NCBI RefSeq assembly: GCF_949987515.2
Contig: NW_027192650.1
Location: 3,472,001-3,536,000 of the forward strand
Length of the DNA: 64,000 bases
Source of the DNA: Delphinus delphis
Lineage: Eukaryota; Chordata; Mammalia; Artiodactyla; Delphinidae
Direction of reading: 5' to 3'
The notes beneath the pieces were generated by a model. It was not told where the DNA came from. It ran no database searches and was given only the letters and a program-made list of their open reading frames with translations. Positions 1 to 53,917 of the stretch are shown here, piece by piece. Position 1 is the stretch's first letter. Each line of letters opens with the position of its first letter. A program made the translations under genes and the position numbers.

Positions 1-90
1 GGGCAGAATTGCAGGAAACCGATTTCAGGAGGTAGACTGGAATTGCATTGAAAGCATAGGAAAAGAGGCAGAACGTCCACAATGATGCAC
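1..90 (+). repeat. Satellite monomer, 3' remnant
   Basis: This is the last 90 bases of a monomer (non-LINE half) leading into the palindrome at 91. The array enters from outside the window. Confidence 0.93.
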
Positions 91-1741: not shown

Positions 1742-1744
1742 CCA

Positions 1745-32837: not shown

Positions 32838-34417
32838 TTGGCCAAAAAGGGCGTATGCGTTTTTTCCTGAATATATTCAGGAAAAAACGCATACGCCCTT
32901 TTTGGCCAACCAAGCAAGCTTGCAAAGGAAATCTGCACTACAATGAAGTCTCACTTCCCCCGGGTCAAAAGGGCCAACTGATAAAATTGTAAAATCCAGA
33001 AATGCAGGACAGGCCATGGAGAACTGGGAGCCTTGTTATGCTGATGGGCGGGATGTAATTTGCCAACAGACACTCGGGAGAAGTGTATGGTGTTTCCTGA
33101 AACATCTAAAAAACAAAGCAACAGAGCCTAGGGCACTTCCACTTATGGTCCTATAGCTTAGGGAAATTAAAATCAAAAAGACACAGCCACCCCAAAGTTT
33201 GGGACGCCTCTGTTTACAAGAACCTCGTTTACCGTACAAGTTCAATATCACAGAAAGTGAAAAATGGATAAAGGACTTGTGGTACTTACGTACAATGCAG
33301 TATCACTCAGCAATGAAATCTATGTCATCAGGCCCGTAGCAGCATAATGAGTGGATTCAGGTACGATGATTCTAACTGAAATAAGTCACACAAAAAAAGA
33401 AACATCAAAAGATATCACTAATGCACGGAATGTAAACTTGGCTACACTGGAACTGAATTCCAAAACAGAACAGGGTCTCAAATTTAGAAAACCAACTTAT
33501 GCTTGCTTAAGGGGAAAGGTCAGTTGGGGTGCTGCATAAAACCAGAGATTGAAATGAGCACAGATAAAGTTCCTTAAGCCAAATATGGAACAGACAAGAG
33601 CTACTCCTTGCTCAACGAAATGGACTCAACACCCCATATTAAACGCCTAAGAATGTACCTGACTAGTAAGTATCTTAAAACCTAGGGATTGCTATGTCTC
33701 CAAAAGAGAATCAAGCGTGTGTACTGGGGAATAAATGCAGCAGTGATAGGATTGGAGAGGTTCGGTGAGCAAATGAAGATCCTTTGAAGTCATATTGCAT
33801 GGTACACATTCCACGGGTCTCAACTCTCCAGGTTTAAGGTATTCTTCCTTCAGCTAAAACATGCATGTGGAACCCAGAGTATGATCAACCGTGTGATCGG
33901 GAGACGTGTTCAAATATGTCTCAGTTTTCATACCCTGGTACTCGGGTGCAACATTCCAGACGCTTTACTAACACTCTCCCGACTTGGAGAGTCAGTGCCT
34001 TTAACCTCCTGTTTGGCCCAGTTTGCAAATTCTGCGGAAGATGAACAGGAATAGGGAGAACCAATGAGAGACTAGCTGGAGGTGTCTGAACGGGCAAATT
34101 TAACTCTCATTTCCCACTAGGAAGGGGAATTAACCAAAGGCTCAGCGTGCCGTGCCGGAAACAGATTAGGGCCTGAAGCCATCCTGCGGTGTTGCGGCCA
34201 GCTCACAAGAAAGTGAGTTGAAGAAAGGAGCTCAGGGGCTCTGTAATTCACAAACCTGCAGAGTTATAAATGACAGCTATCGTCCAAAAATATACTGAAG
34301 TAAGGCTGCCAAGAGGACTTGAAAGCGGGGCAGAATTGCAGGAAACCGATTTCAGGAGGTAGACTGGAATTGCATTGAAAGCATAGGAAAAGAGGCAGAA
34401 CGTCCACAATGATGCAC
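32838..34417 (+). repeat. Satellite monomer M22 (1,580 bp)
   Basis: Perfect palindrome at 32838-32909. Variants CCTAGGGATTGC (~33,681), GTACTGGGG (~33,721), TTTTCATACCC (~33,926) and GGGGCTCTGTAATTC (~34,235) recur five units (~7,900 bp) later in M27. Confidence 0.95.
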
Positions 34418-35997
34418 TTGGCCAAAAAGGGTGTATGCGTTTTTTCCTGAATATATTCAGGAAAAAACGCATACGCCCTTTTTGGCCAACCAAGCAAGCT
34501 TGCAAAGGAAATCTGCACTACAATGAAGTCTCACTTCCCCCCAGTCAAAAGGGCCATCTGAAAAAAGTGTAAAATCCAGAAAGGCAGGAGAGGCCATGGA
34601 GCACTGGGAGCCTTGTTATGCTGATGGGCGGGATGTAAATTGCCAACAGACACTCCGGAGAAGTGTATGGTGTTTCCTGAAACATCTAAAAAACAAAGCA
34701 ACAGAGCCTAGGGCACTTCCACTTATGGTCCTATAGCTTAGGGAAATTAAAATCAAAAAGACACAGCCACCTCAAAGTTTGGGACGCCTCTGTTTACAAG
34801 AACCTCGTTTACCGTACAAATTCAATATCACAGAAAGTGAAAAATGGATAAAGAACTTGTGGTACTTACGTACAATGCAGTATCACTCAGCAATGAAATC
34901 TGTGTCATCAGGCCCGTAGCAGCACAATGAGTGGATTCAGGTACGATGATTCTAACTGAAATAAGTCACACAGAAAAAGAAACATCATAAGATATCACTA
35001 ATACACGGAATGTAAACTTGGCTACACAGGAACTGCATTCCAAAACAGAACAGGGTCTCAAATTTAGAAAACCAACTTATGCTTGCTTAAGGGTAAAGGT
35101 GAGTTGGGGTGCTGCATAAAACCAGAGATTGAAATGAGCACAGATAAAGTTCCTTAAGCCAAATATGGAATAGACAAGAGCTACTCCTTGCTCAACGAAA
35201 TGGACTCAACACCCCATATTAAACGCCTAAGAATGTACCTGACTAGTAAGTATCTTAAAACCTATGGATTGCTATGTCTCCAAAAGAGAATCAAGCGTGT
35301 GTAAAGGGGCATAAATGCAGCACTGATATAATTGGAGAGGTTCGGTGAGCAAATGAAGACCCTTTGAAGTCATATTGCATGGTACCCATTACACGGGTCT
35401 CAACTCTCCAGGTTTAAGGTATTCTTCCTTCAGCTAAAACATGCATGTGGAACCCAGAGTATGATCAACCGTGTGAACGGGAGCCGTGTTCAAATATGTC
35501 TCAGTTTTCCTCCCCTGGTACTCGGGTGCAACATTCCAGATGCTTTACTAACACTCTCCCTACTTGGAGAGTCAGTGCCTTTAACCTCCTGTTTGCCCCA
35601 GTTTGCAATTTCTGCGGAAGATGAACAGGAATAGCGAGAACCAATGAGAGACTACCTGGAGGTGTCTGAACGGGCAAATTTAACTCTCATTTCCCACCAG
35701 GAAGAGGAATTAACCAAAGGCTCAGCGTTCCATGCCAGAACCACATTAGGGCCTGAAGACATCCTGCGGTGTTGCGGCCAGCTCACAAGAAAGCGAGTTG
35801 AAGAAAGGAGCTCAGGGGCACTGTAATTCACAAACCTGCAGAGTTATAAATGACAGCTATCGTCCAAAAATATACTGAACTAAGGCTGCCAAGAGGACTT
35901 GAAAGCAGGGCAGAAATGCAGGAAACCAATTTCAGGAGGTAGACAGGAATTGCATTTCAAGCATAGGAAAAGAGGCAGAACGTCCACAGTGATGCAC
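34418..35997 (+). repeat. Satellite monomer M23 (1,580 bp)
   Basis: The palindrome at 34418-34489 has one left-arm change (GGGTGTATGC). From ~34,800 it carries the variant set repeated 3,160 bp downstream (GTGTAAAGGGGC, GAGCCGTGTTC, TTTGCCCCAG). Confidence 0.95.
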
Positions 35998-37578
35998 TTG
36001 GCCAAAAAGGGCGTATGCGTTTTTTCCTGAATATATTCAGGAAAAAACGCATACGCCCTTTTTGGCCAACCAAGCAAGCTTGCAAAGGAAATCTGCACTA
36101 CAATGAAGTCTCACTTCCCCCCGGTCAAAAGGGCCATCTGAAAAAAGTGTAAAATCCAGAAAGGCAGGACAGGCCATGGAGAACTGGGAGCCTTGTTATG
36201 CTGATGGGCGGGATGTAAATTGCCAACAACCACTCGGGAGAAGTGTATGGTGTTTCCTGAAACATCTAAAAAACAAAGCAACAGAGCCTAGGGCACTGCC
36301 ACTTATGGTCCTATAGCTTAGGGAAATTAAAATCAAAAAGACACAACCACCCCAAAGTTTGGGACGCCTCTGTTTACAAGATCCTCGTTTACCGTACAAG
36401 TTCAATATCACAGAAAGTGAAAAATGGATAAAGAAGTTGTGGTACTCATGTACAATGCAATATCACTCAACAATGAAATCTATGTCACCAGGCCCGTAGC
36501 AGCATAATGAGTGGATTCGGGTATGGTGATTCTAACTGAAATAAGTCACACAGAAAAAGAAACATCAAAAAATATCACTAATACATGGAATTTAAACTTG
36601 GCTACAGAGGAACTGAATTACAAAACAGAACAGGGTCTCAAATTTAGAAAACCACCTTATGCTTGCTTAAGTGGAAAGATGAGTTGGGGTGCTGCATAAA
36701 ACCAGAGATTGAAATGAGCACAGATAAAGTTCCTTAAGCCAAATATGGAATAGACAAGAGCTACTCCTTGCTCAACGAAATGGACTCAACACCCCATATT
36801 AAACGCCTTAGAATGTACCTGACTAGTAAGTATCTTAAAACCTATGGATTGCTATGTCTCCAAAAGAGAATTAAGCGTGTGTACAAGGGTCATAAACGCA
36901 GCAGTGATAGGATTGGAGAGATTCGGTGAGCAAATGAAGACCCTTTGAAGTCATATTGCATGGTACCCATTCCACTGGTCTCAACTCTCCAGGTTTAAGG
37001 TATTCTTCCTTCAGCTAAAACATGCATGTGGAACCCAGAGTATGATCAACCATGTGATCGGGAGACGTGTTCAAATATGTCTCAGTTTTCGTCCCCTGGT
37101 ACTTCGGTGCAACATTCCAGACGCTTTACTAACACTCTCCCCACTTGGAGAGTGAGTGCCTTTAACCTCCTGTTTGGCCCAGTTTGCAATTTCTGCGGAA
37201 GATGTAAAGGAATAGGGAGAACCAATGAGAGACAAGCGCGAGGTGTCTGGACGGGCAAATTTAACTCTAATTTCCCACCAGGATGAGGAATTAACCAAAG
37301 GCTCAGCATGCCGGGCCAGAACCAGATTAGGGCCTGAAGCCATCCTGCGGTGTTGCGGCCAGGTCACAAGAAAGCGAGTTGAAGAAAGGAGCTCAGGGGC
37401 ACTGTAATTCACAAACCTGCAGAGTTATAAATGACAGCTATCGTCCAAAAATAGACTGAAGTAAGGCTGCCAAGAGGACTTGAAAGCGGGGCAGAATTGC
37501 AGGAAACCGATTTCAGGAGGTAGACTGGAATTGCATTGAAAGCGTAGGAAAAGAGGCAGAACGTCCACAATGATGCAC
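35998..37578 (+). repeat. Satellite monomer M24 (1,581 bp)
   Basis: Perfect palindrome at 35998-36069, preceded by the CAGAAATGCAGG and GCATTTCAAGC variants shared with M26. One extra T lies near 36,890 (AAGGGTCATAAAC). Confidence 0.95.
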
Positions 37579-39157
37579 TTGGCCAAAAGGGCGTATGCGT
37601 TTTTTCCTGACTATATTCAGGAAAAAACGCATACGCCCTTTTTGGCCAACCAAGCAAGCTTGCAAAGGAAATCTGCACTACAATGAAGTCTCACTTCCCC
37701 CCGGTCAAAAGGGCCATCAGAATAAAGTGTAAAATCCAGAAAGGCAGGACAGACCATGGAGAACTGGGAGCCTTGTTATGCTGATGGGCGGGATGTAAAT
37801 TGCCAACAGACACTTGGGACAAGTGTATGGTGTTTCCTGAAACATCTAAAAAACAAAGCAACAGAGCCTAGGGCACTTCCACTTATGGTCCTATAGCTTA
37901 GGGAAATTAAAATCAAAAAGACACAGCCACCCCAAAGTTTGGGACGCCTCTGTTTACAAGAACCTCGTTTACCGTACAAATTCAATATCACAGAAAGTGA
38001 AAAATGGATAAAGAACTTGTGGTACTTACGTACAATGCAGTATCACTCAGCAATGAAATCTGTGTCATCAGGCCCGTAGCAGCACAATGAGTGGATTCAG
38101 GTACGATGATTCTAACTGAAATAAGTCACACAGAAAAAGAAACATCATAAGATATCACTAATACACGGAATGTAAACTTGGCTACACAGGAACTGCATTC
38201 CAAAACAGAACAGGGTCTCAAATTTAGAAAACCAACTTATGCTTGCTTAAGGGTAAAGGTGAGTTGGGGTGCTGCATAAAACCAGAGATTGAAATGAGCA
38301 CAGATAAAGTTCCTTAAGCCAAATATGGAATAGACAAGAGCTACTCCTTGCTCAACGAAATGGACTCAACACCCCATATTAAACGCCTAAGAATGTACCT
38401 GACTAGTAAGTATCTTAAAACCTATGGATTGCTATGTCTCCAAAAGAGAATCAAGCGTGTGTAAAGGGGCATAAACGCAGCACTGATAGGATTGGAGAGG
38501 TTCGGTGAGCAAATGAAGACCCTTTGAAGTCATATTGCATGGTACCCATTACACGGGTCTCAATTCTCCAGGTTTAAGGTATTCTTCCTTCAGCTAAAAC
38601 ATGCATGTGGAACCCAGAGTATGATCAACCGTGTGAACGGGAGCCGTGTTCAAATATGTCTCAGTTTTCCTCCCCTGGTACTCGGGTGCAACATTCCAGA
38701 TGCTTTACTAACACTCTCCCTACTTGGAGAGTCAGTGCCTTTAACCTCCTGTTTGCCCCAGTTTGCAATTTCTGCGGAAGATGAACAGGAATAGCGAGAA
38801 CCAATGAGAGACTACCTGGAGGTGTCTGAACGGGCAAATTTAACTCTCATTTCCCACCAGGAAGAGGAATTAACCAAAGGCTCAGCGTGCCATGCCAGAA
38901 CCACATTAGGGCCTGAAGACATCCTGCGGTGTTGCGGCCAGCTCACAAGAAAGCGAGTTGAAGAAAGGAGCTCAGGGGCACTGTAATTCACAAACCTGCA
39001 GAGTTATAAATGACAGCTATCGTCCAAAAATATACTGAACTAAGGCTGCCAAGAGGACTTGAAAGCAGGGCAGAAATGCAGGAAACCAATTTCAGGAGGT
39101 AGACAGGAATTGCATTTCAAGCATAGGAAAAGAGGCAGAACGTCCACAGTGATGCAC
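37579..39157 (+). repeat. Satellite monomer M25 (1,579 bp)
   Basis: The palindrome from 37579 has lost one A in the left arm (CCAAAAGGG) while the right arm keeps five T, and its centre is ACTATA. It carries CATCAGAATAAAGTG (~37,715). The left-arm A loss is shared with M27 and M28. Confidence 0.95.
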
Positions 39158-40737
39158 TTGGCCAAAAAGGGCGTATGCGTTTTTTCCTGAATATATTCAG
39201 GAAAAAACGCATACGCCCTTTTTGGCCAACCAAGCAAGCTTGCAAAGGAAATCTGCACTACAATGAAGTCTCACTTCCCCCCGGTCAAAAGGGCCATCTG
39301 AAAAAAGTGTAAAATCCAGAAAGGCAGGACAGGCCATGGAGAACTGGGAGCCTTGTTATGCTGATGGGCGGGATGTAAATTGCCAACAACCACTCGGGAG
39401 AAGTGTATGGTGTTTCCTGAAACATCTAAAAAACAAAGCAACAGAGCCTAGGGCACTGCCACTTATGGTCCTATAGCTTAGGGAAATTAAAATCAAAAAG
39501 ACACAACCACCCCAAAGTTTGGGACGCCTCTCTTTACAAGAACCTCGTTTACCGTACAAGTTCAATATCACAGAAAGTGAAAAATGGATAAAGAAGTTGT
39601 GGTACTTACGTACAATGCAGTATCACTCAGCAATGAAATCTGTGTCATCAGGCCCGTAGCAGCACAATGAGTGGATTCAGGTACGATGATTCTAACTGAA
39701 ATAAGTCACACAGGAAAAGAAACATCATAAGATATCACTAATACACGGAATGTAAACTTGGCTACACAGGAACTGCATTCCAAAACAGAACAGGGTCTCA
39801 AATTTAGAAAACCAACTTATGCTTGCTTAAGGGTAAAGGTGAGTTGGGGTGCTGCATAAAACCAGAGATTGAAATGAGCACAGATAAAGTTCCTTAAGCC
39901 AAATATGGAATAGACAAGAGCTACTCCTTGCTCAACGAAATGGACTCAACACCCCATATTAAACGCCTAAGAATGTACCTGACTAGTAAGTATCTTAAAA
40001 CCTATGGATTGCTATGTCTCCAAAAGAGAATCAAGCGTTTGTAAAGGGGCATAAACGCAGCACTGATAGGATTGGAGAGGTTTGGTGTGCAAATGAAGAC
40101 CCTTTGAAGTCATATTGCATGGTACCCATTACACGGGTCTCAACTCTCCAGGTTTAAGGTATTCTTCCTTCAGCTAAAACATGCATGTGGAACCCAGAGT
40201 ATGATCAACCGTGTGAACGGGAGCCGTGTTCAAATATGTCTCAGTTTTCCTCCCCTGGTACTAGGGTGCAACATTCCAGATGCTTTACTAACACTCTCCC
40301 TACTTGGAGAGTCAGTGCCTTTAACCTCCTGTTCGCCCCAGTTTGCAATTTCTGCGGAAGATGAACAGGAATAGCGAGAACCAATGAGAGACTACCTGGA
40401 GGTGTCTGAACGGGCAAATTTAACTCTAATTTCCCACCAGGATGAGGAATTAACCAAAGGCTCAGCGTGCCGTGCCGGAACCAGTTTAGGGCCTGAAGCC
40501 ATCCTGCGGTGTTGCGGCCAGGTCACAGGAAAGCGAGTTGAAGAAAGGAGCTCAGGGGCACTGTAATTCACAAACCTGCAGAGTTATAAATGACAGCTAT
40601 CGTCCAAAAATAGACTGAAGTAAGGCTGCCAAGAGGACTTGAAAGCGGGGCAGAATTGCAGGAAACCGATTTCAGGAGGTAGACTGGAATTGCATTGAAA
40701 GCGTAGGAAAAGAGGCAGAACGTCCACAATGATGCAC
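39158..40737 (+). repeat. Satellite monomer M26 (1,580 bp)
   Basis: Lies 3,160 bp after M24, with the same CAGAAATGCAGG/GCATTTCAAGC approach and a perfect palindrome at 39158-39229. Confidence 0.95.
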
Positions 40738-42316
40738 TTGGCCAAAAGGGCGTATGCGTTTTTTCCTGAATATATTCAGGAAAAAACGCATACGCCCTTT
40801 TTGGCCAACCAAGCAAGCTTGCAAAGGAAATCTGCACTACAATGAAGTTTCACTTCCCCCCGGTCAAAAGGGCCATCAGAATAAAGTGTAAAATCCAGAA
40901 AGGCAGGACAGGCCATGGAGAACTGGGAGCCTTGTTATGCTGATGGGCGGGATGTAAATTGCCAACAGACACTTGGGACAAGTGTATGGTGTTTCCTGAA
41001 ACATCTAAAAAACAAAGCAACAGAGCCTAGGGCACTTCCACTTATGGTCCTATAGCTTAGGGAAATTAATATCAAAAAGACACAGCCACCCCAAAGTTTG
41101 GGACGCCTCTGTTTACAAGAACCTCGTTTACCGTACAAGTTCAATATCACAGAAAGTGAAAAATGGATAAAGAACTAGTGGTACTTACGTACAATGCAGT
41201 ATCACTCAGCAATGAAATCTATGTCATCAGGCCCGTAGCAGCATAATGAGTGGATTCAAGTACGATGATTCTAACTGAAATAAGTCACACAGAAAAAGAA
41301 ACATCAAAAGATATCACTAATACACGGAATGTAAGCTTGGCTACACTGGAACTGCATTCCAAAACAGAACAGGGTCTCAAATTTAGAAAACCAACTTATG
41401 CTTGCTTAAGGGTAAAGGTGAGTTGGGGTGCTGCATAAAACCAGAGATTGAAATGAGCACAGATAAAGTTCCTTAAGCCAAATATGGAACAGACAAGAGC
41501 TACTCCTTGCTCAATGAAATGGACTCAACACCCCATATTAAACGCCTAAGAATGTACCTGACTAGTAAGTATCTTAAAACCTAGGGATTGCTATGTCTCC
41601 AAAAGAGAATCAAGCGTGTGTACTGGGGCATAAATGCAGCAGTGATAGGATTGGAGAGGTTCGGTGAGCAAATGAAGACCCTTTGAAGTCATATTGCATG
41701 GTACCCATTCCACGGGTCTCAACTCTCCAGGTTTAAGGTATTCTTCCTTCAGCTAAAACATGCATGTGGAACCCAGAGTATGATCAACCGTGTGATCGGG
41801 AGACGTGTTCAAATATGTCTCAGTTTTCATACCCTGGTACTCGGGTGCAACATTCCAGACGCTTTACTAACACTCTCCCGACTTGGACAGTCAGTGCCTT
41901 TAACCTCCTGTTTGGCCCAGTTTGCAATTTCTGTGGAAGATGAACAGGAATAGGGAGAACCAATGAGAGACTAGCTGGAGGTGTCTGAACGGGCAAATTT
42001 AACTCTCATTTCCCACTAGGAAGAGGAATTAACCAAAGGCTCAGCGTGCCGTGCCGGAAACAGATTAGGGCCTGAAACCATCCTGAGGTGTTGCGGCCAG
42101 CTCACAAGAAAGTGAGTTGAAGAAAGGAGCTCAGTGGCTCTGTAATTCACAAACCTGCAGAGTTATAAATGACAGCTATCGTCCAAAATTAGACTGAAGT
42201 AAGGCTGCCAAGAGGACTTGAAAGCGGGGCAGAATTGCAGGAAACCGATTTCAGGAGGTAGACTGGAATTGCATTGAAAGTGTAGGAAAAGAGGCAGAAC
42301 GTCCACAATGATGCAC
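40738..42316 (+). repeat. Satellite monomer M27 (1,579 bp)
   Basis: Lies 3,159 bp after M25 with the same four-A left arm and CATCAGAATAAAGTG (~40,873). Its second half matches M22 (five units upstream), so it joins two source units. Confidence 0.95.
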
Positions 42317-43108
42317 TTTGCCAAAAGGGCGTATCCGTTTTTTCCTGAATATATTCAGGAAAAAACGCATACGCCCTTTTTGGCCAACTAAGTAAGCTTG
42401 CAAAGGAAATCTGCACTACAATGAAGTCTCACTTCCCCCCGGTCAAAAGGGCCATCAGAATAAAGTGTAAAATCCAGAAAGGCAGGACAGGCCATGGAGA
42501 ACTGGGAGCCTTGTTATGCTGATGGGCGGGATGTAAATTGCCAACAGACACTCGGGACAAGTGTATGGTGTTTCCTGAAACATCTAAAAAACAAAGCAAC
42601 AGAGCCTAGGGTACTTCCACTTATGGTCCTATAGCTTAGGGAAATTAATATCAAAAAGACACAGCAACCCCAAAATTTGGGATGGCTGTTTTTACAGGAA
42701 TCTCTTCTACGGCACAAGTTAAATATCCCAGAGAGCAAATAATGGATAAAGAAGTTGCGGTACTTATGTACAACAGAATACCACTCAGCAATGAAATCTA
42801 TGTCACCAGGCCCGTACCCGCATAATGAGTGGATTGAGGCACGATGATTCTAAGTGAAATAAGTCACACAGAAAAAGAAACATCATAAGGTATCACTAAT
42901 ACACGGAATGTGAACTTGGCTACACATGAACTGAATTACAAAACAGAACAGGGTCTCAAGTTTGGAAAATCAACTTATGCCTGCTTAAGGGGGAAGGTGA
43001 GTTGGGGTGCTGCATAAAGCAGAGTTTGAAATTAGCACAGATACCGTTCCATAAGCCAAATATGTTATAGACAAGAGCTACCCCTTGCTCAACGAAATGG
43101 ATTCAACA
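42317..43108 (+). repeat. Satellite monomer M28, truncated and diverging array edge
   Basis: The palindrome from 42317 has several left-arm changes (TTTGCC end, four A, TATCCG). The first ~340 bases are array-like; from ~42,660 substitutions become dense (for example GGGATGGCTGTTTTTACAGGAATC) and several resemble the old monomers of the interruption. The unit ends after GGATTCAACA, where the LINE-1 at 43,109 begins. It marks the left edge of the homogenised array. Confidence 0.92.
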
Positions 43109-43855
43109 ATGAGGTATCACCTCTCACCTGGTAGAGTAGGCATCATTGAAAATCTACAAAGAAAAAATGCTGGAAAGGGTGTGGAGAAAAGGAACCCTCT
43201 CCCACTATTGTTGGGAATATAAATTGATACAGTCATTATGGAGAACAATATGGAATTTCTTAAGAAACTAACAATAGAATTACCATATGATACAGCAATC
43301 CCAGTACTGGACATATACCCAGACAAAACCATAAATCAAAAAGAGTCATTCACCGCAATGTTCATTGCATCACTATTTACAATATCGAGGTAATGGAAGC
43401 AACCTAAATGCCCACAGACAGACGAATGCATAAAGCTGTGGTACATATATAAAATGGAATATTACTAAGCCATGAAAAGGAATGAAATTGGGTCATTTGT
43501 AGAGACGTCGATGGATCTAGAGACTGTCATACAGAGTGAAGTAAGTCAGAAAGAGAAAAACAAATCTTGTATATTCATGCATATATGTGGAACCTAGAAA
43601 AACTGTACAGATTAACCATTTTGCAAGGCATAAATAGAGCAACAGATGTAGACAACAAACGTATGGACAACAAGGGGGGAAAGCTGTTGGGGGGTGGTGG
43701 TGGGAGGAGTTGAGAGACTGGGATTGGCATGTATACATTTATATGTATAAAATAGATAACCAATAAGAACCTGCTGTATAAAAATATAAAATAAAATTCA
43801 AAATTAAAAAGAAATAAAATTTAAAAAATAAAACAGAAAAAACAATTATTCCCTG
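43109..43855 (+). mobile_element. 5'-truncated LINE-1 3' end with A-rich tail
   Basis: Contiguous similarity to the typical mammalian LINE-1 end: ORF2 3' end (TATCACCTCTCACCTGGTAG..., ATGCTGGAAAGGGTGTGGAG, CATATACCCAGACAAAACC, GGTACATATATAAAATGGAA), then a 3' UTR with a G-rich stretch (43,674-43,710) and ATAAAATAGATAACCAATAAG, typical of cetartiodactyl LINE-1 ends. The tail at ~43,780-43,855 is A-rich. Stop codons interrupt the reading frame, so it is dead. It begins exactly where satellite monomer M28 stops. The satellite does not resume after the tail, so this is not a simple insertion into a monomer. No target-site duplication was identified by eye. Confidence 0.9.
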
Positions 43856-44040
43856 CACATACATGTATTTATATGAATAAATTATTTCCATGCTTATATC
43901 TGTAAATACAAAAAAGAGGAATAAAATCTACCTTGAACCAAAAACGAAAAAGAGAAAAAAAACACAGAACCCACCAGTTACACAGAGGAAAACCGTATCA
44001 GGGCACTTGCTCCAGTTGTAAACAATTCTGAAGTTGGTCA
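43856..44040. other. AT-rich unassigned sequence
   Basis: AT-rich DNA following the LINE-1 tail, with A-rich runs (near 43,925-43,965). I recognise no repeat family or coding potential. Confidence 0.5.
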
Positions 44041-45290
44041 GTGGTGGGGAATCGTCTCCCATTCAGCCAGCAGCCCCCACGCAACAAGCGTCCTCATTGC
44101 AAAGCTGGGGCACCGTGCCGAGGCATCTGTGAGTAAACGTGAGCTGAGCCCCAGGCCAGTTGCTGCTGAACTATTCCCACCCGTCCCAGGTAAAACACCT
44201 GAATATATACAAGGACTTGAAAGCCTAGAGGAAGGGCCATAGAGCCACACGAGTGACAGCATGCCGGCCGACTTGGTGCCTGCAGGCCAGCCAGGATGGT
44301 CCTGGCCCTGGGTGCTCTTCTGGAAGATTTCCATTTCCCTGCCTGAGATACCCGTCCTGTCCCTGCCCCCACTGCTTTTTTCCTTCCTCACCTCTGCCCA
44401 GGGAGAAATTCCAGCAGCAGGTATGGGTGACACATCCTCTTCTTTAGCAGGTGGCAGCCTGGCAACTGCTGCAGAAAGTCCAGCAGAGCCCCACTCACAC
44501 TGGGCCACCCACAAAGCCGTGGCCTCTCACTCCCTCCCACCAGCCCAGCCCCGAGACTGCTGACAGGGCAGAGAAAATGGCGTCAGGCACGGCTGCAGGG
44601 GCTCTTGCTGCCTGGAGTGGTATTTATATTGATCTCAACCCAAGCACACCTGGGGAGGGCTGGCCGGCACGGTAAGGCTGCCCAGGTCAGCCAATCATCA
44701 CCCCTCAGGGGCTCACAGTTGCAGAAAATGGAACTTGCTGAACCGGCCAGGTCCAAGGAACAGGTGTGGGCTCCTGAGAGTCAGGATAGACAAGGGGCTG
44801 CAGCTTTGGCTTGTTTTCTAATCATTTTATCTGGCCCATGAGTGGGAGACAACTTCAAGAAAACCCTCTCCTAATGAGAGGAACCCAGGAGTCAGGGAGA
44901 GGAGGGGTGGGTGGTGGTTGGAGACAGAGGCCTGGTGCCCCGGGTGCAGTGGAAGTCTCTGGAAGACCAGGTGGAGGGAGGCCTCACGGAGTGATGCCCA
45001 GGGTCACAGACCTGTCGCAGCTGCTGTTTGTTAGTTCAAGTCCTGCTCTGAGGTGCTCTGTGTCAGCTCTGAGCGACAGGTGAGCTGGGGGTGCTCTGCA
45101 ATGAGGGCTATGTGCACGGTTCCTGTGTGCCCAGCCCTGCCACGGTACCTGCAAGGGTAGCTCTGTATCCTGGGAGGGGCCTGACCACGAGAGCCCCGTG
45201 GGCTGGGGTGGGGGTGGGGTACCTGCCCAGGTGAGCTCCATATTCTGGGATTGGTCTGACCACGAGAGCCCCATGGGCTGCTGGGGACCT
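44041..45290. other. GC-rich unassigned segment inside the array interruption
   Basis: Base composition changes sharply from the AT-rich satellite and LINE DNA to GC-rich sequence with C- and G-rich runs. The longest open frame is 158 codons on the minus strand (44,038-44,514), with overlapping frames on the other strand. None resembles a family I recognise, and overlapping opens in several frames are expected in GC-rich DNA. It could be host segmental DNA captured into the array, or a decayed upstream part of the ERV remnant that follows. No splice or promoter structure was identified. Confidence 0.5.
45144..45288 (+). repeat. Two-copy 74-bp tandem duplication
   Basis: GGTACCTGC at 45,144 and again at 45,218 starts two similar stretches. 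Each contains TGACCACGAGAGCCCC and a GTGGGCTG/ATGGGCTG end, with several substitutions between copies. It is an isolated duplication in the GC-rich segment. Confidence 0.75.
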
Positions 45291-46440
45291 GGTAAAGGAT
45301 GTCAGGACAGTCAGTGAAGCCACCGAGGATATACCTCCAGTTGCTCCTAATTCCTACACCCTGCTGGTCATTCTACCAACCACCAGGACATGGTATTCTG
45401 TATTAGTCTTCAATGATGCCTTCTTTTGTATTCCATTAGTCCCAGAGTCACAAGAAATTTTGGCTTGTGAGTGGCAGGACTCAACATACAACTAAAACAA
45501 TACTTCCGGGCCATCTGGCCCCAAGGGTGCAAAAATTCCCACACCATCTTTGGGGAAAGCTTAGCTAAAGACCTAAAAGTTCTACCTCTGGAAAAGGAAA
45601 CCCTCCTTCAATATGCAGACGACATTCTGATCACCAGCCCTACTAAGGAGGCCTCTGAACTACCAAGCCAGTAAAGGATAGAAGTTGTCCAAGAAAAAGC
45701 TCAAATATCACAGACTGCGGTGACCTGCCTGGGCTTCATTCTCACAGAAGGTCAGAGAAGCCCATCCCAGGAAAGGGAAGAAACCATTTTCAGCCTTACC
45801 CCTTTCTAAAACTAGAAGACAGCTTAGGGGTTCCTGGGGAGGCCAGGGTTTGCTGCTTCTGGATCCCTAACTACAGTCTACTAGCTGGGCCTCTATATGA
45901 AACACTGAAAGGAAAAGATGATGATCCTTTTGAATAGAATCCAGAAGTGGCCTTTCAAGAATGGAAAGATCAGTCAATTCAGACCCTTGCCCTGGAACTC
46001 CCTAATTTAGCTAAACCCTTTGACCTTTACATTCCCGGTGAAAGGTGAATCGCCATTGGAGAATTAGTGCAAAAACTGGGACCACTTGAAATGGAACAAT
46101 GCAAGAATGCCATCCAGGTAGGATAAACTACGGTCACTAAGGGGCTTGGCCCACTGCCACATCTGGCCAAGATACTGGCGGTATCTAAAAACCTGGAAAT
46201 CAGCAGCCCAAAAGGCCACCTCCCTCCTAAGGGAAAAGGACCCCACGTGGTGATCCTAACCACCAACCATGCCCTGAAGTTGCAGGGTTCGCTCCGTGGG
46301 CACACCGACCTCGAGTGAGGAGGCCCTCCAACTCCAACATCCAGAGAGATAACCGGGGGCAACAGGGCACCATGACGACTCGTGTGAACATCACTTGACC
46401 TGGAGTTTCTCTCATAAAACAACAAGAGTGTGTCCCAAAA
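45291..46440 (+). pseudogene. pol: Degenerate ERV1/gammaretrovirus-like pol (reverse transcriptase to RNase H region)
   Basis: Read on +, the 45,291-45,680 stretch resembles retroviral reverse transcriptase: a proline-rich approach, FNDAFFCIPL near 45,413, and the polymerase active-site box QYADDILI at about 45,610-45,633, whose two aspartates are the metal-binding pair. The frame stops at ~45,672. Similarity continues in shifted frames with further stops (for example at ~45,936 and ~46,046) through a connection/RNase H-like part to ~46,310. It is a dead copy with several frameshifts and stops; no integrase was recognised. The order pol, env trace, LTR on one strand indicates a single provirus remnant. 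The gammaretrovirus-like assignment rests on the style of the motif block, not a search. Confidence 0.82.
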
Positions 46441-46449
46441 GAGTAGACT

Positions 46450-46790
46450 ACTGCTTGCAGGACTTACTGCACCCAGAGGGGAGCTAATAATCTTGGTGGG
46501 GGAACAGTATACCACACTGTCACCATAGAAAAGCCTACAGACACCGTGATGATGGTGGCCAATAAGACCGGCTGGACTCCTGTTTACTTCAAAAGGCTGT
46601 TGACTCAGTAGCCATCATGGTCCTTGATCACCACTGACCCTGGACTGTCTGGGAGTTGAGCGGGCAGGGCTCTGACACCTGGTGCTGTTTGTACGTTAAT
46701 TCAGGGGCCTAACTGAAGAAAGCGCAGACTACTGGTCAGAGCATCTAGGCTGGCAGAGACGGTCAGCCTAAGGTGGCCGAACAAATGTGG
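46450..46790 (+). pseudogene. env: Probable ERV env (transmembrane subunit) trace
   Basis: A short translated stretch at about 46,674-46,712 reads DTWCCLYVNSGA and ends in a stop. The WCC at ~46,680-46,688 with a following YVN resembles the cysteine motif of gammaretroviral transmembrane ectodomains. The cysteine expected seven residues upstream of the pair is replaced by glycine, and the surrounding frame has stops. It lies between pol and the LTR, as env should. The boundaries are uncertain and everything outside the motif is weak. Confidence 0.55.
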
Positions 46791-47042
46791 GGCGGGGTGA
46801 AACCGGCCCCCACAGCGTCTCTGCACATCTCTTTCCTGGACCCTTAAAGGTCATTAGAATCTATAACACTTCCAATGCTGGTGCTCAGGTGGACGAGCAG
46901 GGAGGCAGGGGTCCTGGGGACAATCAACGTCACCGGGAGGCTGCTGGGGAGAAGCTCTGACCCTCGCCCCAGGGTATGAGGGCTCCCAACTCAGCACTCA
47001 GCAGTTACAGAAGAAGGGTCTGCACCCTCAGCACTCCAAGAA
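46791..47042. other. Unassigned, probably decayed ERV internal sequence
   Basis: Between the env trace and the LTR. No motif was recognised and no clear polypurine tract was found directly before the LTR; assigned to the provirus by position only. Confidence 0.4.
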
Positions 47043-47550
47043 TGAGGAACGGGACAAAAGGCAGAGGAGGGGTTTGTCCCCAGCAAAGCCCATTAAAAAT
47101 CCCTGGGAGATAAAAATAGAATCTGGGCAATAAAGTCAAGTCTAACCTTTTTTATCCTTTGTGCTTTGTCTAATTTCACGTGCTCCTAGGGTCCCGCATG
47201 CAGAGGTTCCACACCCGGCACTTCAGACCAGATTTCCTAGTGCAGAATGGCTGGGTCGACACCTCAGCTCCTGGGGCCCAGTGCAGACTCCACGATATAG
47301 AGCCTGAGCTACAGCCAACCCGGCCCTCGAGAGCTCCGCCACCTCCCTCCCTCCCACTGACTCTGACAGGATCTCTACACAGCAGCCCAGCCCACAGCCC
47401 ACGGGGTAGTGCATGCTCTCACCTCTCCATTCTCTGATCAAAATATAAAGTTTCCTTTGCTTGTGAACCAAACTCAGTCTCGATCTGTTGGCCCCAATGA
47501 CACTGGGCAGGGGGACACTTGTTGGGGTCCACTCTGGAGGATCAGTAACA
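47043..47550 (+). mobile_element. ERV long terminal repeat (3' LTR)
   Basis: The proposed limits give a 508-bp element starting TGAGGAACGGG and ending GATCAGTAACA, the TG...CA ends expected of an LTR. Inside are AATAAA at 47,129-47,134, an ATATAAAG box at 47,443-47,450, and an R/U5-like end (CTCAGTCTCGATCTGTTGG near 47,472, ACACTTGTTGGGGTC near 47,516) resembling gammaretroviral LTRs. It follows the pol and env remnants on the same strand, so it is the 3' LTR. No partner LTR was found upstream. The 5' limit is less certain than the 3' limit. Confidence 0.7.
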
Positions 47551-47870
47551 GAAATTGAGACTATTGTAACCTCAATGAACAGATGTGTGAGCCAAACTGT
47601 AGTTAACATAGAACAGTGTATAAGGCTCGGGTAAAATAAGATGTTTTTAACACTTCCATTTGATATTTCCATCACTTTTTATAAGCAAGTTCAGTGAAAA
47701 GGTTTGTCTTATTTGTCAGGTCAATATTAGAGAAACGAAGTGATTTCTTTCCAAGGATGTACATTTAATAATCTTGGTTAAACCTTCAATCTTGTTTTAA
47801 ATGCTTTTCCATTGAAAATGATACCTCTCTTTCAGCTCCCCCATTTCTGAGAAGTATAAAATCTTATAAT
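47551..47870. other. AT-rich unassigned sequence
   Basis: About 320 bases between the LTR and the next LINE-1 fragment. No repeat family, open frame or tandem structure was recognised. Confidence 0.5.
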
Positions 47871-48046
47871 TTATTATTACCAAAGGGGAAAGGTGGGAGG
47901 AGGGATAAATTAACAGTTTGGAATGAACACATACACACTGCTATGTATAAAATAGATCATCAACAAGGAACTACTGTATAGCACAGGGAACTACACTCAA
48001 CATTTTGCAATAACCTATAAGGGGAAATAATCTGAAAAAGAATAGA
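47871..48046 (+). mobile_element. LINE-1 3' UTR fragment
   Basis: Typical cetartiodactyl LINE-1 3' UTR: CCAAAGGGGAAAGGTGGGAG, then ATAAAATAGATCATCAACAAGG, CTGTATAGCACAGGGAACTA, CAATAACCTATAAGGGGAAA and TCTGAAAAAGAATAGATAT. It lacks the very 3' terminus and tail. It is the same LINE-1 section found, much more decayed, in the satellite monomer, and lies ~0.8 kb upstream of the first old monomer palindrome. Confidence 0.85.
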
Positions 48047-48266
48047 TATTTTTATTGACATCATCTATCAATGACAGTTAAAGTGTAGCCTAAGGGAAGC
48101 TGGTGGTGAGTGCTTCTGACCCTGAAGACTTCAATCATCTAAAGTTTGGACTCTGCCTACTTCCCAAGGCCCTTAATGAACATATGTGTAGCTGTAGCTT
48201 AAAAAATTCCCCAGTTTGGGTTTCGGGGAGACACTGATTTTGAAAAAGCCCTGGTGTTCTCCTTAC
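48047..48266. other. Unassigned sequence upstream of the first old monomer
   Basis: Not aligned by eye to either monomer type. The 48,200-48,262 stretch (AAAAAATTCCCCAGTTTGGG, CGGGGAGACACTG, CTGGTGTTCTCCTTAC) looks LTR-like, but this is only an impression. Confidence 0.4.
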
Positions 48267-48849
48267 ATGAATGGGACTCTTCCTACTGCTAAAACATGTC
48301 TGTCACACCCAGAGGATGGTATACCGTCTGATCGGGAAGAGTTTGGAAAAGGCATCTCATCTCCTCATCTCCTGGTGCTCGGGTTCACCCCTCCAGCGTC
48401 TTTACTAACAGTCTCCCCACTTGGAGATGTCAGCACTGTCAACATCCTGTTGCGTACAGTTTGGAATTTGTCCAGAGGATGAAGCGGAAGGATGAGGAAC
48501 AATGAGAGACAAGTCCTAGGTGTTCAGACAGGCACATGTCACTCTAATTTCCAATCAGGAAGATGAATTGACCAAAAGCTAGGGTTGCCCATGGAAACAG
48601 TATAGGGCTTGAGGAAATCCCGCTGCTTTGTGGCCAGTTCCCATAAACACGAGTTGAACAATGGAACTCAGGGGCAGTAAAATTCACAAAACTGCAGAGT
48701 TGAAAATATCCATCACTGAAAAATGTCTTGAGGAAAGTCAGAGAAAAGGACTTGTAAGCAAGGGAGAATGGCAGGAAAGGGATTTGAGGAGGTAGAAAGG
48801 ACTCGCCATTAAGCACAAGAAAAGGAGCTGAACATTGCCAACATTGCAG
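48267..48849 (+). repeat. Old diverged satellite monomer D0 (partial, non-LINE half)
   Basis: Aligns with the second half of the array monomer: CTGCTAAAACATG, GATCGGGAAGAG, CTCGGGTTCACC, CTTTACTAACAGTCTCCCCAC, CAATGAGAGACAAG, CTGCAGAGTTGAAAAT. It shows many substitutions and small indels and is clearly older than the array units. It leads into the palindrome at 48,850. Confidence 0.87.
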
Positions 48850-48919
48850 TTGGCCAAAAAGGGTGTATGCGTTCTTTTCTGTATATATTCAAGAAAAGGG
48901 CATACACTTTTTTAGCCAA
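48850..48919. repeat. Diverged palindrome with one matched (compensated) arm change
   Basis: In this old 70-bp copy the consensus C in the left arm is T at 48,864, and its pairing partner G in the right arm is A at 48,906, so TGTATGC still pairs with GCATACA. Other positions in the copy are mismatched. Confidence 0.85.
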
Positions 48920-49740
48920 CCAAACAGGTGGGCACTGGAAGTCAATACTACAAAAGATATCACTTCGCATCAGTCAGAAGAGCCATCCTCATAAAGCGTA
49001 AACAACAGAAATGCAGGACAGGGCAACGAGAAGAGGGAGCCCTGTGAGACTTATAGTGGAAATGTATATTGCCAATGGCCATTCTGGAGAAGTGTATTGT
49101 GTTTACTAAAGCATCTAAAAAATGAGCTACAGAGCATAGGGCACTTGCACTCATGGGCGTATATCTTGGGAAAAACAAAAATCGAGAGGACACAGGCACC
49201 CCAATGTTTACCCCCTCTCTGTTTAAAAGATCCTCGACTAGGATATAACTTAAATGTCTCTGGAGGGAAAAAATGGATAGAGATGTGGTACTTAGGTAGA
49301 GTGGAATATTATTCAGCCTGGAAATCAATGAAATATGGCCAGTTGTAACAAATCTGGAGGAGTTACGTATGATCATTCTAAGTGACAGAATTCAAAAAGA
49401 AAAAGACACATATCATAAGATATCACTTAAAGGTGGAATCCAAAATGGCTACACATGAAATAAATTACAAAACAAAAACATAGTCAAATATGTAGAAAAC
49501 ACGCATAAGGCTGCTAAACGGGAAAGGTGGGGAGGGGTGAGGCATCATCCAGGAGGTTGAAATTAGCAAAGATACCATTCCAAATACCAAACTGATAATC
49601 AACAAGGCCTACACGGTAGCTAAAAGAACTGCACTCAGCACACTCAAGTCACCGGAAAAGAATATATACGACTGGTAAGAATCTGAAAAAGAATTTATTG
49701 ATGTCTCTCTGTACGTGAATCAAGTGGATGTACAGCAGCA

Positions 49741-49920
49741 AGAAACAGAGCTTTGAAAATCAGCTGTAACCAATATAGTAATAAATTGAAAAAAATAAAT
49801 GACAGAGAGACAGAGAAAACCTCTTACAACTTTTCCTCAGGGACGGTGATGCAACATGGATTGAACACATCTAGACCCACAGCAGGATGAGACATAAGGC
49901 TGGAAACTGTTTGCGCTAAG
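49741..49920 (+). repeat. ~170-180-bp block absent from array monomers (copy in D1)
   Basis: Flanked by array-homologous sequence on both sides (CAGCAG at ~49,733 before; GAGGTTGGGTGAGG-type sequence after ~49,920). It includes the LINE-1 3' terminus and A-rich tail, then a stretch beginning CTCAGGGACGGTGATGCAAC and containing GACATAAGGCTGG. It is shared with D2 (51,502-51,669) and missing from all ~1,579-bp units here. Confidence 0.85.
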
Positions 49921-50589
49921 AGAAATGTGAGGTTGGGTGAGGAAATGCACACCCTTTAAAGTAATACTACCTGGTACCCATTCAATGGGTCCCAAATCTG
50001 CAGGTTCAAGGGATCTTCCTACAGCTAAAACATGCATGGAAAACCCAGAGGACTGTACACCATGTGATCGGGAGATGTGTCTAAAATGCACCTCATTTAT
50101 CCTCTCCTGGTGCTCCTGTTCACCATTCCAGCCATGCTACTTAGAATCTCCCCACTTGGAGAATCAGCACATTTAAACTTCTGTTTCACACATTTTGCAA
50201 ATTGTGAGGAGGATGAACGGGAAGAGGGGGAACCAATGAGAGAAGAGTTGTAGGGGTTTGGACGGGCATATATCACTCTAATTTCCCATTAAGAATAAGA
50301 ATTAAAGAAAGGCTCAGCCTGCCTCGCCGGAGCCAAAATAGGGCCTGAAGCAATCCTGCGGGTTTGAGGCCAGCTCACAAAAGAGCAACTTAAAAAATGG
50401 AGCTCAGGGTCACTGCAATTCACAAACCTGCAGAGTTATAAATGAAAACTAACGTCCAAAAATATGTTGAGGTAAGGCAAAGAAGAGGATCTGAATGCAA
50501 GACAGAATTGCAAGAAACAGATTTCAAGAGATAGATTGGACTCGTCTTTAATGCACATGAAAAGCGGCAGAATTTCGACAATGATGCAG

Positions 50590-52338
50590 TTGGCCCAAAA
50601 GGGCGTATGCGTTTTTTCCTGATTATATCCAGGAAAAACGCATACGCACTTTATGGGCAACAAAGCAAGCAAGCAATGCAAATGTGCACAACAAAGAAGT
50701 CTCACTTCCCACCGGTCAAAAGGGCCATCCTAAAAAATTGTAAAAACCAGAAATGCAGGACAGGCCATGGAGAACAGGGAGCCTTTATACGCTGATGGGC
50801 AGTGTGTGAACTGCCGAGAGCCACTCTGGAGAAGTGTATGGTGGTTCCTAAATCATCTAAAAAACAGAGCTACAGAGCATAGGACACTTCCAATCATGGG
50901 AGTATATCTAGGGAAGTCTAAAAATCAACAAGACACAAGCACACCACAGTTTAGGGCTACTCTGTTTACAAGAACCTCAACTTCAGTACACCTTAAATAT
51001 CCCAGGAAAGAGAACAATGGATAAAGAAGATGTGGTACTTATGTACAATGGAATATCTCTTCACCATGAAATCAATGTAATAAGGCTAGTAGAAGGATAA
51101 AGAGTGGATTTAGGTCCGATAATACTACTTGAAATAAGTCAAACAGAAAAAGAAACATATCATAAGATATCACTTATAGAGGGAGGGTAAATATGGCTGC
51201 ACAAGAAATGAATTACAGAACAGAACAGTGTCTCACATTTAGAAAACACACTTATGTCAGCTTAAGGGGAAAGGAGAGGTGGGGTGATGCATAAAACCAG
51301 AGTTTGAAATTAGCACAGATACCGTTCAATAAACCAAATAGGTATTAGACAAGATCTACACCTTGCTCAATGAACTGGCCTCAACACACCCTATACACCG
51401 CAGAGAAATATATCTGAGTAATAAGAATCTTAAAACCCATGTATTGATATATCTCCATAAGGGAATCAAGTGTGTGCAGAGCGGCACAAACACAGCAGTG
51501 AAAATGAGCTAAACCCCATTATAGAAATAAATTTTAAAAACAAAACGCTGAAACAATGAAAGAGAGAAAAATTCTTACAAAATTCGCTCAGGGGCTGTGA
51601 TGCAACCTGGATTGACCACATATAAACCCACAGCTGGATAAGACATAAGGCTGGACACTTGGGGCTGAGAGGATTGGTGAGCTTTGGTGAGCAACTGCCG
51701 AAAGTTTAATGCAATACTTCATGCTACTCAGTCCAAGGGTCCCAACACTCCAGGTTGAAGGGAATCTTCCTACAGCTAAACCATGCTTGGGAAACCCAGC
51801 GACTGGTATACCATATGATCGGGAAAGGTTTCTAAAACGCACCTCATTTTTCCTCTCCTGGGGCTCCGGATCGACATTCCAGCCGCTTTACTAACAACAT
51901 CCCCACATGGAGTCAATGCCTTTAAGTTCTGGTATCGCACAGTCTGCAGTTAGTGCAGAGGATGAATGGGAATAGGGGGAACCAGTGAGAAACTAGCTGT
52001 AGCGGTTTCAATGGGCACATGTCACTCTAATATCACATCAGTAAGAAGAATTAACCAAAGGGACAGCAAGGTGCCCCAGAAGAAAAATAGGGTTTCAAGG
52101 AATCCTGTGGTTATGGGGCAAGACCACAAAAATAAGAGCTAAAAAATGGAGCTAAGGGCCACTGCAATTCAAAAACCTGCAGAGTTATAAAGGCCAACTA
52201 TTTTTAAAAAATATATTGAGGTAAGGCTATGAAGAGGCATTGAAAGCAAGGCAGAATTGCAGGAAACCGATTTCAGGAGGTAGACTGGAATTGCACTGAA
52301 AACATATGAAGAGAGTCAGAAACTCGACAATGATGCAC
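50590..52338 (+). repeat. Old diverged satellite monomer D2 (1,749 bp, ancestral length)
   Basis: Palindrome spacing is 1,749 bp. It is less diverged from the array consensus than D1 but still clearly distinct. The palindrome near 50,590-50,660 keeps most of both arms (GGGCGTATGCGTTTTTTCC and its partner) with a handful of changes. It carries the extra block at 51,502-51,669. The last ~100 bases approach array-type sequence. Confidence 0.92.
51502..51669 (+). repeat. 168-bp block absent from array monomers (copy in D2)
   Basis: Left of it the sequence reads CACAGCAGTGA (to 51,501) and right of it AGGATTGGTGAG (from 51,670). Array units join these directly as CAGCAGTGATAGGATTGG. The D2 length of 1,749 minus 168 gives 1,581, matching the array unit. 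Both breakpoints sit at a TGA trinucleotide, a possible microhomology. Confidence 0.87.
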
Positions 52339-53917
52339 TTGCCCAAAAAGGGCGTATGTGTTTTTTCCTGAATATATTCAGGAAAAAACGCATACGCACT
52401 TTTTGGCCAACCAAGCAAGCTTGCAAAGGAAATTTGCACTACAATGAAGTCTCACTTCCACCTGGTCAAAAGGGCCATCTGAAAAAAGTGTAAAATCCAT
52501 AAAGGCACGACAGGCCATGGAGAACTGGGAGCCTTCTTATGCTGATGGGCGGGATGTAAATTGCCAACAGCCACTCTGGAGAAGAGTATGGTGTTTCCTG
52601 AAACATCTAAAAAACAAAGCAACAGAGCCTAGGGCACTTCCACTTATGGTCCTATAGCTTAGGGAAATTAAAATCAAAAAGACACAGCCACCCCAAAGTT
52701 TGGGACGGCTCTGTTTACAAGAACCTCGTTTACGGTACAAGTTCAATATCACAGAAAGTGATAAATGGATAAAGAACTTGTGGTACTTACGTACAATGCA
52801 ATATCACTCAGCAATGAAATCTATGTCATCAGGCCCGTAGCAGCATAATGAGTGGATTCAGCTATGATGATTCGAACTGAAATAAGTCACACAGAAAAGA
52901 AACATCATAAGGTATCACTAATACACAGAATGTGAACTTGGCTACACATGAACAGAATTACAAAACAGAACAGTGTCTCAAGTTTAGAAAACCAACTTAC
53001 GCTTGCTTAACGGGGAAGGTGAGTTGGGGTGCTGCATAAAACCAGAGATTGAAATGAGCACAGATAAAGTTCCTTAAGCCAAATATGGAATAGACAAGAG
53101 CTACTCCTTGCTCAACGAAATGGACTCAACACCCCATATTAAACGCCTAAGAATGTACCTGACTAGTAAGTATCTTAAAACCTATGGATTGCTATGTCTC
53201 CAAAAGAGAATCAAGCGTGTGTACAGGGGCATAAACGCAGCACTGATAGGATTGGAGAGGTTCGGTGAGCAAATGAAGACCCTTTGAAGTCATATTACAT
53301 GGTACCCATTACACAGGTCTCAACTCTCCAGGTTTAAGGTATTCTTTCTTCAGCTAAAACATGCATGTGGAACCCAGAGTATGATCAACGATGTGAAAGG
53401 GAGACGTGTTCAAATATGTCTCAGTTTTCCTCCCCTGGTACTCGGGTGCAACATTCCAGATGCTTTACTAACACTCTCCCTACATGGAGAGTCAGTGCCT
53501 TTAACCTCCTGTTTGCCCCAGTTTGAAATTTCTGCGGAAGATGAACAGGAATAGTGAGAACCAATGAGAGACTACCTGGAGGTGTCTGAACGGGCAAATT
53601 TAACTCTCATTTCCCACCAGGAAGAGGAATTAACCAAAGGCTCAGCGTGCCATGCCGGAACCACATTAGGGCCTGAAGACATCCTGCGGTGTTGCGACCA
53701 GGTCACAAGAAAGCAAGTTGAAGAAAGGAGCTCAGGGGCACTGTAATTCACAAACCTGCAGAGTTATAAATGACAGCTATCGTCCAAAAATATACTGAAG
53801 TAAGGCTGCCAAGAGGACTTGAAAGTGGGGCAGAATTGCAGGAAACCGATTTCAGGAGGTAGACAGGCATTGCATTTCAAGCATAGGAAAAGAGGCAGAA
53901 CGTCCACAATGATGCAC
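52339..53917 (+). repeat. Satellite monomer R1 (1,579 bp), transitional unit
   Basis: First unit of delphinid length right of the interruption. The palindrome (52339-52410) has TTGCCC at its left end and a left-arm C-to-T at 52,359 whose partner G at 52,390 is unchanged. It retains old-unit features (for example GTGAACTTGGCTACACATGAAC near 52,930, shared with M28 at ~42,910) among array-type sequence. Confidence 0.94.

What the first reader, a model, noticed from the sequence alone, without database searches (positions are those of the whole stretch)
48850..52338. Fossil ancestral-length monomers beside the derived array record the ~1,750 to ~1,579-bp length change
Two complete old monomers (1,740 and 1,749 bp) lie in phase and in the same orientation next to the 1,579-bp array. 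Relative to D2, array units lack exactly one block (51,502-51,669, 168 bp) that includes the LINE-1 A-rich terminus. The breakpoints share TGA. From established knowledge as I recall it, most cetaceans have ~1,750-bp units and delphinids ~1,580; these relics would be pre-deletion units surviving in a non-homogenised pocket of a delphinid genome.
Basis: partly seen in the sequence, partly recalled or inferred. Interest (0 to 1): 0.82.

Follow-up and report, generated by a model that had tools for sequence, protein, structure and literature searches.

The report
Old satellite repeats inside copied module
Two old, longer copies of a dolphin satellite repeat are not leftovers in a forgotten corner: they ride inside a roughly 10,000-base module found in nearly two thousand places in the genome, while the closest relatives that still keep the lost piece are a different, rare set of units.

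Summary
D1 (48,850-50,588) and D2 (50,589-52,338) are ~1,740/1,750-bp monomers in phase with a 1,579-bp array, which lacks one large block: 167 bp (51,499-51,665), TGA-flanked, containing the LINE-1 3' terminus. Assembly figures identify Delphinus delphis. Polarity is supported: 25 sampled short units group together (100/99), D1 and D2 fall outside, and LINE-1 homology runs into the block. The "non-homogenised pocket" is refuted. D1 and D2 belong to a ~10-kb module (truncated array unit, LINE-1 piece, unclassified DNA, retroviral remnant, D0-D1-D2). Its 5' junction 27-mer has 1,892 exact genome hits; D1 lies 6.63-6.66 kb downstream at 65 of 68 junctions checked. Sampled module copies are ~99% identical, more alike than array units (96.4%). 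Nor are D1 and D2 the immediate pre-deletion units: rare ~1,745-bp units ("LU", 49 exact hits) keep the block, are 92-93% identical to short units, and are their sister group. The truncated unit of 8 of 9 module copies branches outside LU+short, so the module probably formed before the deletion. No other cetacean genome could be searched.

The parts
1..42316 (+). short (about 1,579-bp) common-cetacean-type satellite array, left side
   Evidence: one internal deletion variant at 9,197
42317..43108 (+). array unit cut at unit position 794: left end of the module; in 8 of 9 module copies it branches outside LU + short units
43095..43121 (+). module 5' junction 27-mer (array unit into L1; ACA shared by both sides)
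   Evidence: 1,892 exact genome hits, 0 in the reversed control; for ACA in an array unit and in a real L1 copy
43109..43840 (+). LINE-1 fragment, part of the module
   Evidence: 76.2% over 684 bp to L1 copy L038, E 1.8e-134, and matches to 7 of 8 L1 loci; 98.4% in the C244 module
43841..45400 (.). unclassified non-satellite DNA, part of the module
   Evidence: 9 copies, mean pairwise 99.57%; no Pfam match in the 2 open frames tried
45401..47530 (.). broken retroviral-like remnant (boundaries approximate, drawn by eye); reverse-transcriptase piece 45,471-45,671 (+)
   Evidence: RVT_1 E 8e-07, 29.4 bits, just under the curated cut-off 29.6; two other pieces gave no match
47870..48060 (+). LINE-1 3'-end fragment in front of D0
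   Evidence: matches to 6 of 8 L1 loci, best 78.4% over 185 bp, E 1.5e-39
48278..48848 (+). D0, 3' part of an old monomer
   Evidence: 70.8% to short units, 71.9% to D1
48850..50588 (+). D1, old long monomer (1,739 bp)
50589..52338 (+). D2, old long monomer (about 1,749 bp)
51499..51665 (+). block absent from short units (167 bp), begins with the L1 3' terminus and A-rich tail
52339..53917 (+). first short unit after the module, in phase

Best explanation
D1 and D2 are passengers of a composite higher-order satellite module of about 10,022 bp: [array unit cut at position 794 | L1 fragment - unclassified DNA - retroviral remnant - L1 fragment - D0 - D1 - D2]. Inferred history: (1) the ancestral array was made of ~1,745-bp L1-derived units, with decayed monomers D0, D1, D2 lying at one edge against L1/retroviral-bearing flanking DNA; (2) an end-joining tandem duplication with 3 bp (ACA) of microhomology joined an internal unit to that flank and made a repeatable module; (3) a 167-bp deletion in the array lineage made the short unit, which took over (122,423 junction hits, about 193 Mb) and left a rare sister family, LU, with the block; (4) unequal exchange among arrays spread and homogenised the module together with short units, so spacing is mostly 10,022 + n x 1,579 bp; (5) occasional homologous exchange moves sequence both ways (array/D2 hybrids on C244; array sequence over the truncated unit on C35). 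Shown: module identity, hit numbers, phase, homogeneity of sampled copies, sampled short units as one group, LU as its sister, the hybrids. Inferred: edge origin, tandem-duplication birth, unequal exchange as the engine, order of events 2 and 3.
For:: the D2 query had 1,282 candidates; the 40 scored (the window's own among them) were all printed as 100% (719-724 bits) on 15 contigs; module pieces in the fetched loci match the window at 97.8-99.8%; C31 has the module in tandem at 11,601 bp = module + one short unit (hit spacing); 1,892 junction hits, 0 controls; 2,192 D1 hits at up to 2 mismatches; 65 of the 68 junctions listed on C1-C12 have D1 6,633-6,660 bp downstream; 34 of 47 spacings under 120 kb are within 0.03 unit of 10,022 + n x 1,579; 7 more exceed this by 0.11-0.14 unit, and in 5 of those 7 an exact LU hit lies in the gap; two modules chosen by junction, not by D2, hold D2 at 99.1% and 98.9%; short group 100/99, LU group 100/99; truncated units of 8 of 9 modules outside LU+short (fork 99/96); two tandem 1,748/1,747-bp hybrids, crossover inside a 14-bp shared stretch.
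Against: The 14 aligned D1+D2 copies were taken from the best D2 hits, so 99.08% is biased upward; only two copies were chosen without that bias. The truncated unit of the module is less homogeneous (97.83%, 7 copies). Exact D2 junction hits (518) are far fewer than 5' junction hits (1,892); a 2-mismatch D2 count did not complete, so some modules may lack or vary in D2. 3 of 68 listed junctions have no D1 at the expected place. 6 of 47 spacings fit neither rule. Trees used 25 or 50 short units of about 122,000, so a divergent short subfamily could change the rank of the truncated unit or of LU; the tree is midpoint-rooted. In the first trees the support printed for the short group after rerooting was 0.66-0.67 (FastTree) and 85 and 94 (IQ-TREE). 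Halves disagree: the L1-rooted 5' half puts D2 next to short units, while in the 3' half D1 is closer to them (77.7 against 75.0%).
Confidence: 0.8

Rival explanations
1. One reading: D1 and D2 are lone relics preserved in a pocket that homogenisation missed, and are the direct pre-deletion ancestors.
For: D1/D2 lie outside the sampled short units and keep the ancestral block.
Against: 1,892 junction hits, 2,192 D1 hits, ~99% identity between sampled copies; nearer block-keeping relatives exist.
Confidence: 0.03
2. The module formed after the deletion: an already short array captured old monomers, and the truncated unit comes from a divergent, unsampled array subfamily.
For: The module now lies in short arrays and is ~99% homogeneous; few short units were sampled in the trees; the C35 truncated unit nests among short units.
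Against: 8 of 9 truncated units fall outside LU+short (99/96); LU is the only unit between modules in the fetched stretches of C7 and C3, directly behind D2, and LU spacings of 11,769-11,828 bp also recur on C82, C91 and C101 (those stretches were not fetched).
Confidence: 0.25
3. The block is an insertion gained by D1/D2 rather than lost by short units.
For: By length alone, gain and loss look the same.
Against: D1, D2 and LU share the block at 67-79% identity, and it continues the L1 3' end in register; LU, sister to the sampled short units, has it.
Confidence: 0.03
4. Assembly artefact: collapsed or misjoined repeats.
For: Satellite arrays are hard to assemble.
Against: HiFi assembly with reported primary QV 66.4 (PMC12022549, passage); the same junction recurs 1,892 times with D1 at a fixed distance in 65 of 68 checked.
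Confidence: 0.02

Closest known systems
Common cetacean satellite (Arnason; L1 link by Kapitonov, Holmquist and Jurka 1998, cited in PMC9659126)
   Same: Head-to-tail kb-sized unit in a delphinid, made partly from an L1 3' end
   Different: The passages seen here do not mention a composite module, block-keeping sister units (LU) or hybrids; the original papers were not readable
Alpha-satellite higher-order repeats and decayed monomers at array edges (recalled)
   Same: Diverged monomers copied as one block with high identity between blocks; diverged monomers lie next to non-satellite DNA
   Different: Here the block carries about 5 kb of L1, retroviral and unclassified DNA and sits dispersed among single-unit arrays
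Bovine satellites with an amplified insert, such as 1.711b (recalled; one search gave nothing useful)
   Same: A foreign insert co-amplified inside a satellite
   Different: Not compared here

Membership tests
Common cetacean satellite | Tandem units of about 1,580 bp in a delphinid | tested here: met
   species; the length rule for delphinids is recalled
Common cetacean satellite | Monomer similar to the L1 3' end | tested here: met
   (8 L1 copies of 1,490 pattern hits)
Common cetacean satellite | ~1,750-bp units in non-delphinid cetaceans share the block | not testable with these tools
   no other cetacean genome is held
Higher-order satellite repeat | Multi-monomer block repeated in tandem, copies more alike than its monomers | tested here: met
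   C31 period 11,601; D1-D2 73-75% within, 99.08% between 14 copies
Higher-order satellite repeat | Block made of satellite monomers only | tested here: not met
   about 5 kb of L1, retroviral and unclassified DNA inside
Homogenisation-free relic | Few copies, diverged from each other | tested here: not met
Centromeric satellite with CENP-B box | TTCGNNNNANNCGGG (motif recalled) | tested here: not met
   no match on either strand of the window

The most novel reading that the evidence does not exclude
The module is a frozen, copied cross-section of an ancient array edge (D0, D1, D2, then LU), formed before the delphinid length change and spread to about 1,900 places inside the younger array. 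It acts as a reservoir from which the lost block can re-enter the array, as on C244. The length change and the takeover by short units could then be ordered and dated within one genome.
Probability: 0.45. Interest if true: 0.66.

Novelty: new variant of a known kind. Interest (0 to 1): 0.52.

Why it matters
Satellite units change length between species, but intermediates are rarely seen. One genome here holds old monomers, a block-keeping sister unit, the derived unit and back-recombinants, so the order of deletion, takeover and homogenisation can be tested. It also shows that 'old and diverged' does not mean 'unhomogenised': a diverged monomer can be homogenised as cargo of a larger repeat. 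Monomer trees built without higher-order structure would misread such copies as isolated relics.

Tried and rejected
Rejected: lone pocket (copy number); insertion of the block (L1 register and LU). DNA search with window 44,200-44,600 found nothing, not even itself, probably because the tool skips very common words; not used as evidence. Literature searches for the satellite showed, in the listings (capped: 20 of 23, 20 of 51, 12 of 135) and passages seen, no account of the 1,579/1,750 lengths or of this module; the 1992 and 1998 papers were seen only as citations. Papers seen as passages only: PMC9659126, PMC4053949, PMC5615363, PMC6471113, PMC8909793, PMC11403816, PMC10153287, PMC12060246, PMC12022549; the rest as search listings. 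No L1 match came from two random 10-kb stretches; L1 copies were then obtained by a pattern (8 of 1,490 hits fetched). Rfam search of 42,000-54,000: no match. Rows dropped: trees used 25 of 50 extracted short units plus 3 LU copies (49 exact LU hits); one search used 25 short units, 2 LU and 9 truncated units; the LU on C5 (L042) came later and is in no tree. One search took short units from the window (30) and 7 fetched loci (20), two of which (C1, C37) gave none. The 14 D1+D2 copies exclude partial copies at locus ends and loci L001-L008. Searches used only the first 100 listed places (68 of those 100 junctions, on C1-C12, where the D1 list is complete).

Full report
What is there. The window is C26:3,472,001-3,536,000 of a 2,663,394,344-base, 630-contig genome. 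The published Delphinus delphis assembly mDelDel1.2 has 630 scaffolds, 2,663.52 Mb, a longest scaffold of 184.87 Mb and a chromosome 3 of 173.06 Mb (PMC12022549, passages). The contigs here measure 184,867,555 (C1) and 173,057,467 (C3). Total length and C7 differ slightly from the paper (115,534,172 against 115.54 Mb), so an adjacent version is likely. The genome is thus a delphinid, the short-beaked common dolphin.

Anatomy. A 1,579-bp array fills 1-43,108 and breaks off at unit position 794. It is followed by an L1 fragment (76.2% over 684 bp to a real L1 copy), about 1.5 kb of unclassified DNA, a broken retroviral-like stretch, a second L1 3'-end fragment, and then D0 (partial), D1 and D2. 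The array resumes in phase at 52,339. D1 and D2 are 73.3% identical in the 5' part and 75.5% in the 3' part. D2 is 80.8% and 75.0% identical to short units in the two parts, D1 70.9% and 77.7%, D0 70.8% (3' part only); short units are 96.4-96.5% identical to one another (50 units, 1,225 pairs). The missing block is 167 bp with TGA at both D2 edges.

Polarity of the length change. L1 3' ends from this genome (8 copies fetched of 1,490 hits) align with D1 and D2 across the left edge of the block into the A-rich tail (best copy L033). Anchored scores were equalled by 6, 4 and 14 of 1000 shuffles for D1, D2 and LU, and by 996 of 1000 for the short-unit control; an unanchored test was weak. In a midpoint-rooted tree of non-block columns the 25 short units are one side of a branch (100/99), with D1 and D2 outside. 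The L1-rooted 5' part gives the same short group (99/98) and, with 50 short units, D1 outside D2 + short. So the block was lost once among the sampled units.

Not a pocket. The D2 segment (51,400-51,800) gave 1,282 candidates; the 40 scored, the window's own among them, were all printed as 100% identical (719-724 bits) on 15 contigs. The array-to-L1 junction 27-mer occurs 1,136 + 756 = 1,892 times exactly, 0 in the control. D1's block edge occurs 2,192 times at up to 2 mismatches, D2's 518 times exactly. Of the 68 junctions listed on C1-C12, 65 have D1 6,633-6,660 bp downstream (6,649 in the window). In C31 the module repeats in tandem at 11,601 bp. Of 47 spacings below 120 kb, 34 equal 10,022 + n x 1,579 within 0.03 unit, 7 exceed it by 0.11-0.14 unit and 6 fit neither (counted from its printed list). 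D1+D2 of 14 copies agree at 99.08% (98.57-100), but these copies were picked through D2 hits. Two copies picked through the junction alone hold D2 at 99.1% (C24) and 98.9% (C6) to the window. At 10 kb each, 1,892 junctions stand for about 19 Mb, beside 122,423 short-unit junction hits, about 193 Mb or 7% of the assembly.

The nearest block-keeping relatives. On C7 and C3 the single unit between modules is 1,744-1,745 bp long, 92-93% identical to short units over its length, and keeps the block; its block is 77% like D2's and 67% like D1's, so it was not copied recently from them. The C7 and C3 copies are about 97% alike. Its left block edge occurs 49 times exactly on 24 contigs, some as tandem pairs 1,742-1,745 bp apart. 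On C5 such a unit stands between short units and the cut unit of a module. I call it LU. It is the sister group of the sampled short units (100/99). In 5 of the 7 spacings with a 0.11-0.14 excess an exact LU hit lies in the gap.

Order of events. The cut unit at the module's left end branches outside LU + short units in 8 of 9 copies (fork 99/96), so the module probably formed while the array still had long units. The ninth (C35) nests among short units, as expected if array sequence overwrote it. LU spacings of 11,769-11,828 bp on C3, C7, C82, C91 and C101 look like the ancestral arrangement D0-D1-D2-LU-cut unit, read directly only on C3 and C7. Similarity to short units rises from D1 through D2 to LU in the 5' part (70.9, 80.8, 93%); in the 3' part it is D0 70.8, D1 77.7, D2 75.0 and LU 92%, so D1 and D2 swap. 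Decayed monomers next to non-satellite DNA make an edge origin likely, but that is inference.

Exchange still happens. On C244 two tandem units of 1,748 and 1,747 bp are array-type up to the homologue of 51,360 and D2-type from 51,375, block included. The exact crossover string occurs only at these two places in the genome, so it is most simply one event followed by a duplication. The block can therefore return to the array. L001 and L002 (C375) show D2 cut at 51,859 and fused to an array unit.

Mechanism and limits. The left junction shares ACA between array and L1, which fits end joining; 3 bp is weak. Spread by unequal exchange fits the in-phase spacing and the homogeneity. What moved the module between chromosomes is not shown. 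No function is claimed; no CENP-B box was found in the window.

Novelty. The satellite and its L1 origin are known (PMC9659126, passages). Nine full-text searches of an open-licence library, three of them with capped listings, showed no description of this module, of LU or of the hybrids; subscription papers and supplements were not read. It is a new variant of a known kind: a higher-order repeat that carries non-satellite cargo.

Noticed in passing
window 7983-10729: A unit is cut at position 1,215 and fused to position 45 of the next, giving a 2,747-bp pair: an internal unequal-exchange deletion.
   Followed up: partly
window 18625-18696 and the start of each array unit: A 72-bp palindrome opens the short units: perfect in 16 of 34 unit starts, 92-97% self-complementary in 16, and shifted by an indel in 2; it is decayed in D1 and D2. 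It resembles a mariner-type MITE (recalled, not tested).
   Followed up: partly
window 45471-45671: Broken reverse-transcriptase fragment (RVT_1) inside the module, copied with it.
   Followed up: partly
L022-L024 (C35): The truncated unit of one module copy has been overwritten by short-array sequence.
   Followed up: partly
L001, L002 (C375): D2 is cut at 51,859 and joined to an array unit at both places: another recombination variant.
   Followed up: no
window 12001-18000: A strong lag at 3,159 bp suggests dimer higher-order structure in parts of the short array.
   Followed up: no
C3:38,474,955-38,569,064: Tandem LU pairs recur every 46,169 bp (44,426 + 1,743), which looks like a larger higher-order repeat.
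   Followed up: no
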